Shown in pieces: positions 52,526-62,023 of a DNA stretch of 64,000 bases. The stretch's first letter is position 1. Each line of letters starts with the position of its first letter. Position numbers and translations under genes: made by a program. The stretch comes from Arabidopsis thaliana (taxonomy: Eukaryota > Streptophyta > Magnoliopsida > Brassicales > Brassicaceae), in the NCBI RefSeq assembly GCF_000001735.4, contig NC_003074.8, positions 11,904,101 through 11,968,100 of the forward strand. Direction: 5' to 3'. The notes under the pieces were generated by a model that was not told the DNA's origin, made no database searches, and saw only the letters and a program-made list of their open reading frames with translations.

Positions 52526-54869
52526 ATGGTAAAGTTTGATACAAAACTATGGAAGGCTGTGCTTATGATGTCCATGATCAACATTGGTTTAAGTGTTGTA
52601 AACGTTATGTTCAAGAAGATGATTGATGAAGGACTTAACCGTATGGTCGCGACCACTTACCGACTTGCTGTAGGAACTCTGTTCTTGATACCATTCGCGA
52701 TTTTCTTGGAAAGGTTTGTGTTTGTTTTTGCTAAACTGCAAATATCATATAGATGAAAAGGTTTGTGTTTGTATATGTATATCTAGTTACTTGTCTTCTT
52801 CGTTTTGAAAGTTTAAGTTATACTTGAATTTTTGGTTTAAATTATAAGTGGATGTCTTGTTTATACAAGTTTCTAGTTGAATGTTGTTTTCAAACTCTTT
52901 TCTCCTGTGAATATGTTATTATATATTCGTATTCCATATGAAAGATTTTGTAAGGAAAATAATTTGTTCTTTTTTTGTTTCTCTCTTTTTGTAGACATAA
53001 CAGGCCAAAACTCACGGGTAGGATCTTGTGTTCACTCTTCTTTAGCGCTCTTCTGGGGTATGTTCATTTTATTAGACTGTTCACTTATAATAAATGTTTA
53101 CAAATAAGTTTTGAGTTGTTTATTTTGATCTTGATCGTTCATATATTTGCAGGACAAGTTTGGTGCAATACTTCTTTCTTATTGGACTAGAGTATACATC
53201 TTCAACTTTTTCCTTAGCGTTTAGCAACATGGTTCCTTCGGTTACATTTGCCTTGGCTCTCGTCTTTAGGTATTGAAAAATCGATCAAACACATTTGGAT
53301 TCTTCATATATATGCTCTAGTATTATCAAAATTATTTATAAACTATACGATTAGGCAAGAGACGCTGAACATCAAGAGCAACGTAGGAAGAGCCAAACTG
53401 CTAGGCACAATGATATGTATTTGTGGAGCTTTAGTGCTTACGCTTTATAAAGGAACCGCTTTAAGTCGAGAACACAGTACTCATATGGAAACACATACAA
53501 GAACTGATTCCACCGGTGCAATGACACAAAAGTGGGCAATGGGTTCGATCATGCTGGTTATATCGATCATAATATGGTCATCTTGGTTCATTGTTCAAGC
53601 TAAAATAAGCCGAGTTTATCCGTGCCAATACACGAGTACCACGATCCTCTCTTTCTTTGGCGTGATTCAATCTGCTTTGTTGAGTTTGATCTCGGAGAGG
53701 AGCACATCTATGTGGGTCGTTAAAGACAAGTTCCAAGTTTTAGCTTTACTTTATTCGGTGAGTAATCCAATATACTATTTAATCAACCTACAAGATCTAT
53801 ATGTCAACATATATAAAATTTTATTTTAGTTGTAATTTGTAAACAAAGAAAAAAAGAAACAAAAAACTATTTATGTTTGCATTTGACATGGATATTTTCT
53901 TTCTTGTCCCCCAATGACTTGAGTTCAACTTTTTTCATGTCCCATATCTATCTTTTTTGCTATCTTTTCTTCTTCGATAAATTTAGTTTCCGAATCCACC
54001 ACTGGTGTAGGGTATCGTTGGATCGGGATTGTGCTACGTGGGAATGTCGTGGTGTCTCCGCCAAAGAGGTGCGGTGTTCACGTCGAGCTTCATACCTTTG
54101 ATTCAAGTCTTTGCTGCCATTTTCAGCTTCTCTTTCCTTCATGAGCAAATATACTGTGGAAGGTAACCTAATGTTTCTTTCTACTTATTTATATCATTTA
54201 CTATGTTTAAAATATCTAACAACTTCAACTAAAACAAATAAATAAACAATTGATGAACAACGTATTACAAACAAACAATTTTAAATTAGATCAAACTCAT
54301 CATAATACAATAATATTGCACAATACATATTCAAATATCTATTGACTAGTAAGTACAAGAGAGTAGAGAATATGCCTATATTAAAGACCCTTTCATCTGC
54401 ATTCAAATGTGTAATTGGAATTTTACGCTTTACACCAAATTGATGCATGCATTGCAATAGACAATTTTAAAAATTGTTAGCTTTATAGAATATCATTGAG
54501 ACCCATAATAGACCTTTAATCTGTGTGTTATATAACTGAATTTGAACCGGATTAAATATGGGATTAGAAATGATTACATAGGAGAAAGCTAATTAGTAGA
54601 TGGGTTTCTTTCACGTAAAGCTAATTAAATGGTTCTTTTTGACTTTTATTGCTAATAATATCTAACAAATGAACTATATATGTGGCATGACAAAAAGTGT
54701 GATAGGATCAATGGTCATTATCGTGGGACTTTATATACTTTTATGGGGAAAAAGCAAGGATAAGTCTGCATCAGTGACCAAACAAGAACCATTAGATCTT
54801 GATATTGAAGGTTGTGGGACAGCACCAAAGGAACTCAATAGTACTGCCCATCAAGTGTCTGCAAAATAA
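52526..54869 (+). CDS. UMAMIT / nodulin MtN21-like EamA transporter
   Basis: Six exons: 52526-52713, 52995-53057, 53153-53269, 53355-53757, 54011-54162, 54698-54869. They stay in frame and give 364 residues. Plant drug/metabolite-type carrier of ten membrane spans built from two EamA repeats; characterised members move amino acids, auxin or related solutes across plasma membrane or tonoplast. Visible spans include VLMMSMINIGLSVVNVMFKK, ILCSLFFSALLG, LLGTMICICGALVLTL, AMGSIMLVISIIIWSSWFIV and IPLIQVFAAIFSFSFL. The family's LEYTSSTFSLAFSNMVPSVT and GMSWCLRQRGAVFTSSFIPL blocks are intact. The C-terminus is short and hydrophilic. The start is the first ATG after a long leader. From memory this is At3g30340 (UMAMIT32); the transported solute is not known to me. 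Confidence 0.92.
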
Positions 54870-55066: not shown

Positions 55067-55139
55067 GCCCGTCTAGCTCAGTTGGTAGAGCGCAAGGCTC
55101 TTAACCTTGTGGTCGTGGGTTCGAGCCCCACGGTGGGCG
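55067..55139 (+). tRNA. tRNA-Lys (anticodon CTT)
   Basis: 73 bases with a complete cloverleaf. Acceptor GCCCGTC pairs with GGTGGGC (two G-U pairs). A box TAGCTCAGTTGGTAGAGC, anticodon loop CTCTTAA giving CTT, and B box GGTTCGAGCCC are all present. There is no intron. CCA is not encoded, as in all eukaryotes. A short T run (ACTTTTTG, about 55147-55154) can end Pol III transcription. Likely functional. Confidence 0.97.
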
Positions 55140-55154
55140 CTTGTTTACTTTTTG

Positions 55155-56451: not shown

Positions 56452-57664
56452 TTAAAACTTGTCTGGAGCTCGATTATTGACCGGAGGCTTGCGTCGAGGC
56501 TTACTATAGATCGGATAATCATCACGCAACAACCGAGCCAGTTTCTCCATATCATTGGTTGAAGTAGATGGTTCAAGTGTCGGTAGGCTGGTAAGGTCAT
56601 TGACGATGATCATCATCTTCTTACAAAATGTATTCTGTATATAAATTTTTATATATAAGAAACTTTTTGAACTAGATATATAGATAAGATAACAAAGAGA
56701 CTAAGAGACTAAATCTATATAAGTCTTGAAGAAGGATTACAAGACAAACCTTAGTGGTGTCATGATCTGCCAATATATTGGTCTGCTTATGCTCTCCTGC
56801 AGTAAAGCCAAAACATATCTAGAATGAAGACATGTTCACTACTTTTACCAAACATTTTAGAATCTAAAATAAAGTTCTTTTTTTATAAAGGAGAAAGAAA
56901 GTGTTCTTTGTACAAACAACTAAAGATGATTACCGAAGCTTAAGCATAAAACTAATCAGACGAACTAAAAATAATATTCTACAAAATATTACAAATTATA
57001 TATTGTTGTTGTCGTGATTATAAATTATGTCTAGGAGGATGACGTGCTGGTCCACGATAATCATCATAGAAAGCTACAAATGGACCAGATGATTTTTTCT
57101 TCTTGGGTTTCCTTTTAAATGAAGAACTCTTACTTCTTTTATGAAACCCTAATTTACGTTCCACTATCAAATGTTTTGATGCACCTGAAATCTTGAAGCT
57201 CCAACTATCATTGTTCATCGCGGTAACTTGTTCCTTCTCGGCTCTCGTTGTTCTCCCAAACCTTACTTTCCTCGGTGCATCGAATAGTTCCTGTCATGGT
57301 GTAAAAATTTATAAAATGTATTGGTTTCAGTAAAAAGATATCAAAGTTTGAGAAGGATCTATTGAAAATAAATGTATTACTTTTGGATGCAGCGTCGATG
57401 AATCTTGATCTCCTTGATAGTCAAGACTCTTGTGACCAGCCTCTCCACCTATGAATTCAACATCAATAAAATTAGTAGTAAACTTTGTTATTAAGCTAAT
57501 CTTCAGAGAAAAGAAAGAAAAAATAAAGTAAGGTATGGAAGTAAAGGAAAAATTAGGGATCTTTATGTAAAGGCACCTTCATGAGCATAGACTAGGATAT
57601 GTTCCTCTTCTAGGGATTGAATAATCAAAAGGAAAGCTATGACTATGATTGTGAATCGCATCAT
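56452..57664 (-). CDS. RGF4: RGF/GOLVEN peptide precursor, distal isoform
   Basis: An alternative reading of the gene below. Signal-peptide exon 57664-57577 is joined to exons 56796-56750 and 56634-56452. Phases match exactly (88, 47, 183 bases), giving a 105-residue precursor. The 47-base exon encodes EHKQTNILADHDTTK. The last exon ends RDDYPIYSKPRRKPPVNN plus a short tail RAPDKF. The DDY (sulfation site) and PPVNN fit the RGF/CLEL consensus DY...PPxxN, but with a longer spacer than usual. The exon pair copies the layout of the proximal pair (small phase-1 exon, then terminal exon), and no separate signal-peptide exon is visible at 56797-57017. Whether both isoforms are made, or the distal pair is a relic, needs transcript evidence. 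Confidence 0.7.
57018..57664 (-). CDS. RGF4: RGF4/GLV3-type secreted peptide precursor, proximal isoform
   Basis: Exons 57664-57577, 57448-57381 and 57290-57018 give 142 residues. The first exon is a signal peptide (MRFTIIVIAFLLIIQ). The second and the start of the third are variable and charged. The third has a Lys-rich stretch (KRKPKKKKSSG) and ends YDDYRGPARHPPRHNL. RGF/GOLVEN/CLEL peptides are cut from the C-terminus, tyrosine-sulfated at the DY and hydroxylated at proline; they act outside the cell on RGI receptor kinases to maintain the root meristem and gravitropism. DYRGPARHPPRHN fits the consensus perfectly. From memory this is At3g30350. There are two ATGs in a row; the first is used here. 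All splice sites are GT-AG. A TATATAA-like site lies at about 57942-57948, so the leader may be long. Confidence 0.9.
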
Positions 57665-61023: not shown

Positions 61024-61189
61024 CGTTTATGAACAAAGTAGTGTTGGATTGTGTTCTTGTTTGTTGTATTTGGTTATGATTAAGAATCGTTTATGAACAA
61101 AGTAGTGTTGGATTGTGGAATACAGCTATGCTTATTTATCATCTCAAACATCTCACACTCGCCATTTGGAATACAACTATGCTTATTTA
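61024..61189. repeat. Short direct repeats at the GRF/MuDR junction
   Basis: A 30-base unit (starting CGTTTATGAACAAAG) is identical at 61024-61053 and 61088-61117. Directly after it a 22-base unit (GGAATACARCTATGCTTATT...) occurs at 61117-61138 and 61168-61189. The first pair joins the GRF 3' region to the MuDR fragment. The second duplicates coding sequence of the latter. Confidence 0.88.
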
Positions 61190-61625
61190 TAAACTTCCTA
61201 ATCCTCCACATTGAATCTGAAGGCAGAATCGCAGCATATACTTGCCAAAAACACTTTACTCCATCTTCCTTACCATCACAACCCACACATTTGAATCCAA
61301 TTTTATCAGAATCGTACCTATACTGCTTCAGATTGCACCCAGTTCGGAGAGCGTAATCGACGACGGCTTCTTTGAAAGCAACACCACTGAAAAATGTTTG
61401 CTTCTCGTACAAATGGCCATCGCCACGCTGGAGATGTGTTTGAAATCTTGCTTCGTCTTCGTCGTTTTCTTCACGGTCGCTCTCCGGATAAACATCATGG
61501 TGGATTTGAGGTTCGTCGGTCCATTCATTCAGCATTTCTTCCATGTGAAATTCATCTCTATCTTCGGCTTCAGGATCGACATCACCAACATTCGTAGGGT
61601 CATGCATCATCATCGCCATCTCCAC
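61080..61625 (-). pseudogene. MuDR transposase N-terminal fragment
   Basis: 181 codons. There is an acidic start (DPTNVGDVDPEAEDRDEF, YPESDREENDEDEA), then the MuDR DNA-binding N-terminal domain: GVAFKEAVVDYALRTGCNLK, FKCVGCDGKEDGVKCFWQVY and RKFINKHSCIPNG with the Cys/His pattern intact. The SWIM/MULE catalytic part is missing. The C-terminus repeats INKHSCIP because of a short tandem duplication at the break with the GRF gene's 3' region. The product could at most bind MULE ends. Confidence 0.8.
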
Positions 61626-62023
61626 GACCTTGAGCAGCAGATCGAAAAGCTTCTGGGTTTCTCACTTTTCTAGGGTTCGTCGGGATTTTAGATTTTTAGG
61701 GTTTTTGATTTGGGGGTAAAGGGTTAATGAATTGTTTTCGGATACTTAATTGGGTTGTATTCGGTTTAGTCTGGGTAAAATTAGGTTTGCTTAGGTTTAA
61801 ACGGTTACTTTATTGGTTAAGTATACAGTAAACCGATTAATACCAGCGTCGTGGGGTTATTGATTTCGAACTTTTGATCTCGGGGACATTAAGCTGTAGA
61901 ACTTCGATTTGGTGGGGATATAGGCATTTAACTTCCATATTATGGATAAATAGACCGAGGTGAAAGAACAGGCTCTATCTGGCGTGATATCGATAGTTCC
62001 CGTGGGGAAATAGACCGTTTTTC

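What the first reader, a model, noticed from the sequence alone, without database searches (positions are those of the whole stretch)
56452..57664. One signal-peptide exon, two exon pairs, two different RGF-like peptides
Proximal exons end in DYRGPARHPPRHN, distal exons in DYPIYSKPRRKPPVNN. Both pairs have the same layout (small exon entered in phase 1, terminal exon in phase 0) and splice in frame to the same first exon. This is a mutually exclusive cassette that could switch the hormone released, produced by exon-pair duplication and divergence. It may already be present in reference isoforms; I cannot check.
Basis: partly seen in the sequence, partly recalled or inferred. Interest (0 to 1): 0.8.

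Follow-up and report, generated by a model that had tools for sequence, protein, structure and literature searches.

The report
Second root hormone hidden in RGF4
The Arabidopsis root-hormone gene RGF4 (GLV3) carries, inside a stretch that its database versions cut out, a second hormone-like sequence that cabbage-family relatives keep nearly unchanged, and the plant would likely release one or the other depending on where the message is cut.

Summary
The locus is Arabidopsis thaliana RGF4/GLV3 (AT3G30350). Both peptide ends are real and in frame with one signal-peptide exon. But two A. thaliana database proteins (180 and 163 aa, identical to translations of this window) do not skip the proximal pair: they use exon 2 and part of exon 3, leave exon 3 at one of two internal phase-1 donors, and join the distal exons (R-type DYPIYSKPRRKPPVNN). 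Kept whole, exon 3 ends in an H-type peptide, DYRGPARHPPRHN, absent from the published Arabidopsis table I read. This is an alternative terminal exon, not a mutually exclusive pair; 0 of 42 returned proteins show the 1-to-4 join. The H end occurs in 12 of the 42, six of them joined to a signal peptide. B. napus and B. rapa models are identical over 106 residues, then end in H and in R. A like layout was reported for spruce, whose authors wrote that it was not known in other plants. No RNA or peptide data could be examined: use of the H form in A. thaliana, its sulfation and its activity are inferred, and an identical record could sit unseen in a database cluster.

The parts
57577..57664 (-). 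Exon 1 (coding part): start codon and signal peptide MMRFTIIVIAFLLIIQSLEEEHILVYAHE, ends in phase 1; donor GAAG|GTGCCT
   Evidence: best 12-residue hydropathy 3.4
57381..57448 (-). Exon 2, shared by the H form and the database R forms; phase 1 in, phase 0 out
   Evidence: present in P0002 and P0009, which equal the window translation
57018..57290 (-). Exon 3 in full: predicted terminal exon of the H form, ends DYRGPARHPPRHNL*
   Evidence: counterparts in records of A. suecica, Eruca, B. napus, B. carinata, Cochlearia
57134..57290 (-). Exon 3 cut at internal donor B (AAGAA|GTAAGAGT), phase 1: form of the 180-aa RGF4
   Evidence: translation identical to P0002; 15 of 42 returned proteins have this junction
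57185..57290 (-). Exon 3 cut at internal donor A (TTCAG|GTGCATCA), phase 1: form of the 163-aa protein
   Evidence: identical to P0009; 7 of 42 returned proteins have this junction
57024..57062 (-). H-type RGF-like 13-mer DYRGPARHPPRHN
   Evidence: three spellings in window + 12 relatives, differing at positions 3 and 7
56797..57017 (-). Between the exon 3 stop and exon 4: part of the intron in R forms, predicted 3' UTR with poly(A)-like cluster (56978-57004) in the H form
   Evidence: 8 poly(A)-like hexamers against a Markov mean of 1.5, motifs chosen after reading the stretch; inferred function
56750..56796 (-). Exon 4 (EHKQTNILADHDTTK), phase 1 in, phase 0 out; acceptor TTTACTGCAG|GAGA
56452..56634 (-). 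Exon 5: terminal exon of the R forms
   Evidence: part of P0002 and P0009, both equal to the window translation
56473..56520 (-). Known RGF4/GLV3 peptide DYPIYSKPRRKPPVNN (R type)
   Evidence: (Table 1 of PMC11534595)

Best explanation
This is the Arabidopsis thaliana hormone gene RGF4/GLV3, whose third exon either is cut at an internal donor and joined to two further exons ending in the known R-type peptide DYPIYSKPRRKPPVNN, or, kept whole, would end in a second, H-type peptide DYRGPARHPPRHN, so that RNA processing likely decides which hormone the one signal peptide sends out. Shown: the exon anatomy, the phases, the identity of the two R forms to database proteins, and the conservation of the H end in relatives. 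Inferred: the H form arises when the internal donors are ignored and the message ends in the 221 bases before exon 4 (a composite terminal exon); the H propeptide is cleaved and tyrosine-sulfated like other RGFs; and, as an H-type ligand, it would favour the meristem-type RGF response, whereas the R form acts in gravitropism as published for GLV3/RGF4.
For: Identity of window translations to P0002 (180 aa) and P0009 (163 aa). H end in 12 of 42 returned proteins, six of them starting at the signal-peptide exon (P0001, P0003, P0005, P0006, P0014, P0030). All 16 of the 42 that read on past donor B into YDDY keep YDDY[RH]GPA. B. napus P0005 (H) and B. rapa P0033 (R) identical over 106 of 106 residues and parting exactly at donor B; P0034 (H) and P0028 (R) likewise over 44 of 44. 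On a tree of the shared N-terminal part, H and R endings interleave: at least 4 changes, 3 forced by starred branches. Cochlearia, the most diverged: 9 of 22 linker residues differ against 0 of 16 at the peptide end, Fisher p 0.005, chosen after looking. Neutral simulation at 0.3 changes per site: frame open with at most one change in the 13-mer in 0.08% of runs. [quoted passage not shown]
Against: No RNA reads, ESTs or mass-spectrometry data could be examined. The 142-aa form itself is not among the A. thaliana records listed; the closest, P0001 (98%), is an A. suecica gene model standing for 7 sequences of a 90% cluster whose other members are not shown. Six of the 12 H-end proteins come from short contigs without organism name and do not reach the signal-peptide exon. 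The H peptide varies in fewer columns than the R peptide (2 of 13 against 9 of 16), but over unequal species sets; for Arabidopsis, Eruca and Brassica alone it is 1 of 13 against 4 of 16, Fisher p 0.34. Endings are somewhat clustered on the tree (16 of 500 shuffles as low for H, 25 of 500 for R). Strabala et al. [quoted passage not shown] Four models (P0007, P0021, P0022, P0031) leave exon 3 inside the H peptide codons and destroy it. Pfam scans reported no family for either form.
Confidence: 0.75

Rival explanations
1. One reading: mutually exclusive exon pairs, with exon 1 spliced either to 57448 or directly to 56796.
For: The 1-4-5 join is in frame and gives 105 aa with signal peptide and R peptide.
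Against: 0 of 42 returned proteins show it; the four A. thaliana R-form records returned (P0002, P0008, P0009, P0012) pass through exon 2 and truncated exon 3.
Confidence: 0.05
2. The H form is only an intron-retention by-product: transcribed now and then, not ended by its own poly(A) site, mostly degraded or kept in the nucleus, with little peptide released.
For: The H tail lies in the intron of both database R forms; plant introns are often retained (general knowledge).
Against: The peptide end changes less than its linker in the most diverged relative, which a mere by-product does not explain; a Brassiceae duplicate clade has H-end records (three) and one record cut short, and no R-end record among those returned.
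Confidence: 0.13
3. Dead sequence: the H frame is a leftover that happens to be open.
For: No expression evidence could be tested here.
Against: The frame runs to the H end in 12 returned proteins, and through YDDYRGPA in 4 more whose models then leave the exon; neutral simulation gives 0.08% at 0.3 changes per site, though 11% at 0.1, and the true neutral distances were not measured.
Confidence: 0.04
4. Two overlapping genes: the distal pair has its own promoter and signal-peptide exon.
For: A paper treats AT3G02240 and AT3G02242, both RGF-family genes with neighbouring locus numbers, as a duplicate pair.
Against: Between the exon 3 stop and exon 4 there are four ATGs; only one opens a frame of 12 residues or more, with best hydropathy 1.45 against 3.4 in exon 1; the database R forms identical to this window use exon 1.
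Confidence: 0.03

Closest known systems
Conifer CLEL14/CLEL22, CLEL18/CLEL23/CLEL24, CLEL15/CLEL25 and CLEL20/CLEL26 (spruce; Strabala et al. 2014, PMC4016512, abstract passages, other passages and sections 5 and 6 seen)
   Same: One N-terminal part, two alternative C-terminal peptides of the RGF/CLEL family; [quoted passage not shown] The closest Arabidopsis-conifer relation in their tree was RGF4 with a CLEL16 protein.
   Different: Conifer peptide exons lie about 1 kb apart, here the peptides lie about 0.5 kb apart. [quoted passage not shown] Conifer sequences themselves were not compared here.
Arabidopsis RGF4/GLV3/AT3G30350 as published
   Same: This is the same gene; the R peptide and the 180-aa length agree.
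   Different: The published table lists only DYPIYSKPRRKPPVNN for it; the H end is not in that table.
Arabidopsis RGF1/GLV11 (DYSNPGHHPPRHN)
   Same: 9 of 13 residues shared with the H end, counted by eye from the table, including DY and HPPRHN.
   Different: Separate gene AT5G60810, listed with a single peptide.
Animal calcitonin/CGRP gene (recalled, not looked up)
   Same: Works alike: terminal-exon choice decides which peptide hormone a shared signal peptide releases.
   Different: No kinship; as recalled, that choice is between whole exons, not a donor inside an exon.

Membership tests
RGF/GLV/CLEL peptide family, H end | N-terminal secretion signal | tested here: met
   Exon 1, hydropathy 3.4 over 12 residues; no dedicated signal-peptide predictor was run
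RGF/GLV/CLEL peptide family, H end | C-terminal DY...PPxHN-type 13-mer | tested here: met
   DYRGPARHPPRHN
RGF group H (PMC8329595) | Histidine at position 8, precursor ends with the peptide | tested here: met
   H8 present; one residue (L) before the stop
RGF group R (PMC8329595), distal end | Central R/K, residues after the peptide | tested here: met
   KPRRKPPVNN followed by RAPDKF; 6 residues, where the paper gives 9 to 18 for lycophytes
RGF/GLV/CLEL peptide family, H end | Tyrosine sulfation, proteolytic release, binding to RGF receptors, root effect | not testable with these tools
   needs peptide chemistry and plants
Alternatively spliced two-peptide CLEL gene (conifer kind) | Donor inside the H terminal exon leading to further exons with another CLEL peptide | tested here: met
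   Donors A and B; translations equal P0009 and P0002
Alternatively spliced two-peptide CLEL gene (conifer kind) | Both transcripts made | tested here: inconclusive
   Database proteins for the R form in A. thaliana; the H form only as gene models or frames in relatives
Mutually exclusive exons | Each product contains one of the pairs and not the other | tested here: not met
   Database R forms contain exon 2 and about 35 or 52 residues of exon 3

The most novel reading that the evidence does not exclude
The H/R splice switch is one inherited device of seed plants: RGF4 of Brassicaceae, a Camellia gene and the spruce CLEL14/CLEL22 genes are the same ancestral two-hormone gene, so one locus has chosen between a meristem-type and a gravitropism-type RGF hormone by terminal-exon choice for some 300 million years, and angiosperm studies of GLV3 have looked at half of it.
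Probability: 0.33. Interest if true: 0.85.

Novelty: new member of a known kind. Interest (0 to 1): 0.65.

Why it matters
The Arabidopsis RGF family is listed gene by gene with one peptide each, and GLV3/RGF4 as an R-type hormone. A conserved H-type hormone inside it would mean that glv3 mutants and promoter reporters report on two ligands at once, that H- and R-type signals can be exchanged in one cell by RNA processing, and that a device thought confined to conifers is present in the main plant model, where it can be tested directly. PMC8329595 asks how common such H/R pairs are outside gymnosperms; this is an answer for one family and a lead for another.

Tried and rejected
First guess, from memory: the genes AT3G02240/AT3G02242. 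Rejected: their listed peptides differ, and assigns DYPIYSKPRRKPPVNN to AT3G30350.

Exon-pair duplication: tested by shuffling, supported only marginally for exons 2 and 4, not for the DNA blocks or the linkers.

'The H peptide is under stronger constraint than the R peptide': true in direction, but the pattern used fixed 11 of the 13 H positions, the species sets were unequal, and in matched genera the difference is not significant (1 of 13 against 4 of 16, p 0.34; full sets p 0.052).

Second signal-peptide exon: none found. Pfam: no family reported at E up to 1 for the 142- and 105-aa forms or up to 10 for five relatives; the protein tables give PF27951.1 for many R-form relatives, among them P0007, which the scan did not report, so the held copy seems to lack that model. 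PDB search with a 22-residue piece: nothing. Rfam and tRNA scans of the window: only a tRNA-Lys.

Paralogue search of the whole genome with the Camellia protein: no match, and without a positive control that shows nothing; the 142-aa form matched only its own three exons at E up to 0.001. Whether other Arabidopsis RGF genes hide a second peptide remains open.

Literature: the H peptide string and pieces of it gave 0 papers. Searches for the gene names listed 2 and 18 papers; I opened passages of those that deal with plants' RGF peptides (PMC11534595, PMC3764427, PMC9066070, PMC11939866) and saw no second peptide for this gene; PMC4526922 and PMC8627910 were seen only in the listing. PMC11939866, a Brassica RGF survey, holds no word beginning 'splic' or 'isoform'. 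PMC4526923 counts 'one splice variant' among 11 Arabidopsis GLV proteins without naming it in the passage; it could be one of the two R forms. Other searches gave no report of it, but one search matched 830 papers of which 15 were listed. Whitford 2012, Fernandez 2013 and Meng 2012 are not held under the DOIs I gave, two of them from memory, and supplementary files could not be read, so this is not proof of absence from print or from genome annotation.

Full report
What the sequence shows. The window is G000:C3:11904101-11968100 of a 119.7-Mb, 7-contig genome, and two R-form translations from it are identical to A. thaliana records P0002 and P0009, both listed on a contig of 23,459,830 bases. 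The R peptide DYPIYSKPRRKPPVNN and the length of 180 aa are those given for RGF4/GLV3, AT3G30350, in Table 1 of PMC11534595 (passages seen). The gene lies on the minus strand: exon 1 57664-57577, exon 2 57448-57381, exon 3 57290-57018, exon 4 56796-56750, exon 5 56634-56452. A loose RGF motif occurs twice in the six frames of the window and never in 60 simulated windows.

How the two ends are connected. Joining exons 1-2-3 gives 142 aa ending DYRGPARHPPRHNL. Joining 1-2-3(cut after 57134)-4-5 gives 180 aa, identical to P0002; cutting exon 3 after 57185 gives 163 aa, identical to P0009. Joining 1-4-5 gives 105 aa in frame, but 2-to-4 directly is out of frame. The three protein searches returned 37, 40 and 37 rows, 42 different proteins; all 42 were fetched. 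Of these, 15 show the junction of donor B, 7 that of donor A, 4 leave exon 3 inside the H peptide codons, 12 end in the H peptide, 4 fit none of these classes (P0026, P0035 and the two Camellia proteins) and 0 show a 1-to-4 join. So the gene has an alternative terminal exon with internal donors, not a mutually exclusive exon pair. The database is clustered at 90% identity, so rarer forms may be hidden inside clusters; P0001 alone stands for 7 sequences.

Is the H end real coding sequence? Sixteen of the 42 read through the exon 3 tail into YDDY, and all 16 keep YDDY[RH]GPA; 12 go on to HPPRHN and 4 are led away by their gene models. The 13-mer has three spellings, differing at positions 3 and 7 (with a pattern that fixed the other positions; by eye no other spelling occurs among the 12). 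The R peptide varies at 9 of 16 positions in 25 proteins, but the species sets differ; for Arabidopsis, Eruca and Brassica alone it is 1 of 13 against 4 of 16, p 0.34, so stronger constraint on H is suggested, not shown. In Cochlearia 9 of 22 residues of the linker differ from A. thaliana but 0 of 16 at the peptide end (Fisher p 0.005; the most diverged row, chosen after looking). Under neutral change at 0.1, 0.2, 0.3 and 0.4 per site, an open frame with at most one change in the 13-mer is kept in 11%, 0.75%, 0.08% and 0.005% of 20,000 runs each; the true neutral distances were not measured here. Six of the 12 H-end proteins start at the signal-peptide exon (P0001 A. suecica, P0003 Eruca, P0005 and P0006 B. 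napus, P0014 B. carinata, P0030 Cochlearia); the other six are frames from short contigs. They are gene models or frames, not proof of expression.

One gene or two? B. napus P0005 and B. rapa P0033 agree in 106 of 106 residues and then part at donor B into an H and an R end; P0034 and P0028 do so after 44 of 44. On a tree of the shared part (25 rows: the window and 24 of the 42 proteins) H and R ends interleave, with at least 4 changes, 3 of them forced by starred branches; the labels are still somewhat clustered (16 of 500 shuffles as low for H, 25 of 500 for R). A Brassiceae duplicate clade (P0003, P0006, P0014, with Raphanus P0038; support 94/88, just under the starred level) has three H-end records, and its fourth runs on from exon 4 to an early stop; this looks like a copy that specialised in the H form, but the genomic DNA was not seen. 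No signal-peptide-like start lies between the exon 3 stop and exon 4.

Outside Brassicaceae. The only two hits named from another family, both Camellia sinensis, are weak as whole proteins (E 0.5 and 0.6). P0041 nevertheless carries KISGAS and GSFVAFSADY, matching the exon 3 stretch beyond donor B with score 49 against a shuffled mean of 25 (sd 4, 0 of 2000 as high), and ends in an R peptide DYGGMDNPRRKPPINN. P0042, the second Camellia model, lacks the tail (5.55% of shuffles as high, the match being to its R peptide). This suggests that an H-type exon and an R-type exon share one locus in an asterid too, but the rest of the H peptide is not in the model, and FVAF-DY may be general to H-type precursors, which was not tested.

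Comparison with what is known. Strabala et al. 2014 (PMC4016512; [quoted passage not shown] they stated, data not shown, that Arabidopsis splice events do not change the peptide and that such regulation was not known in other plant species, while in their tree the closest Arabidopsis-conifer relation was RGF4 with a CLEL16 protein. PMC8329595 (passages seen) found H/R pairs with shared N-termini only in gymnosperms and asked how common they are elsewhere; it cites stronger binding to one receptor and the main meristem role for H types. PMC3764427 and PMC9066070 (passages seen) describe GLV3/RGF4 in gravitropism and PIN2 control. None of the passages seen names an H peptide from this gene, and the string search gave 0 papers. 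Whitford 2012, Fernandez 2013 and Meng 2012 are not held.

Mechanism. Most likely exon 3 is a composite terminal exon. When donor A or B is used, the R form is made; when both are ignored and the message ends in the 221 bases before exon 4, the H form would be made. A cluster of poly(A)-like hexamers stands at 57004-56978 (8 in the 221 bases against 1.5 expected, 0.15% of simulations as high, but the motifs were chosen after reading the stretch). The order of events, the poly(A) site, the sulfation and the receptor preference are inferred.

Verdict. Observation confirmed, interpretation partly supported: a known gene with an unlisted, conserved second hormone end, wired by internal donors much as described for spruce. 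Confidence 0.75 in the two-hormone reading (lowered from 0.77 after one search showed that the contrast with the R peptide is not significant in matched genera), interest 0.65.

Noticed in passing
window 55067-55140 (+): A tRNA-Lys (CTT) gene lies about 1.3 kb beyond the end of RGF4.
   Followed up: no
window 61080-61661 (-): A 193-aa frame that, from memory, resembles the N-terminal part of MULE-type transposases; no family search was run.
   Followed up: no
window 53218-53829 (+) and nearby: A long frame that looks like part of a membrane transporter of the nodulin/EamA kind (likeness recalled, not tested).
   Followed up: no
P0003, P0006, P0014, P0038 (Eruca, B. napus, B. carinata, Raphanus): A duplicate RGF4 clade in Brassiceae with three H-end records, one record cut short after exon 4 and no R-end record among those returned: a possible case of the two hormones being shared out between copies.
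   Followed up: partly
P0007, P0021, P0022, P0031 (B. carinata, Raphanus): Gene models that leave exon 3 inside the H peptide codons after GPA; three join exon 4 in its frame, P0022 joins upstream of it. They lose the H peptide and keep the R peptide; perhaps prediction artefacts.
   Followed up: partly
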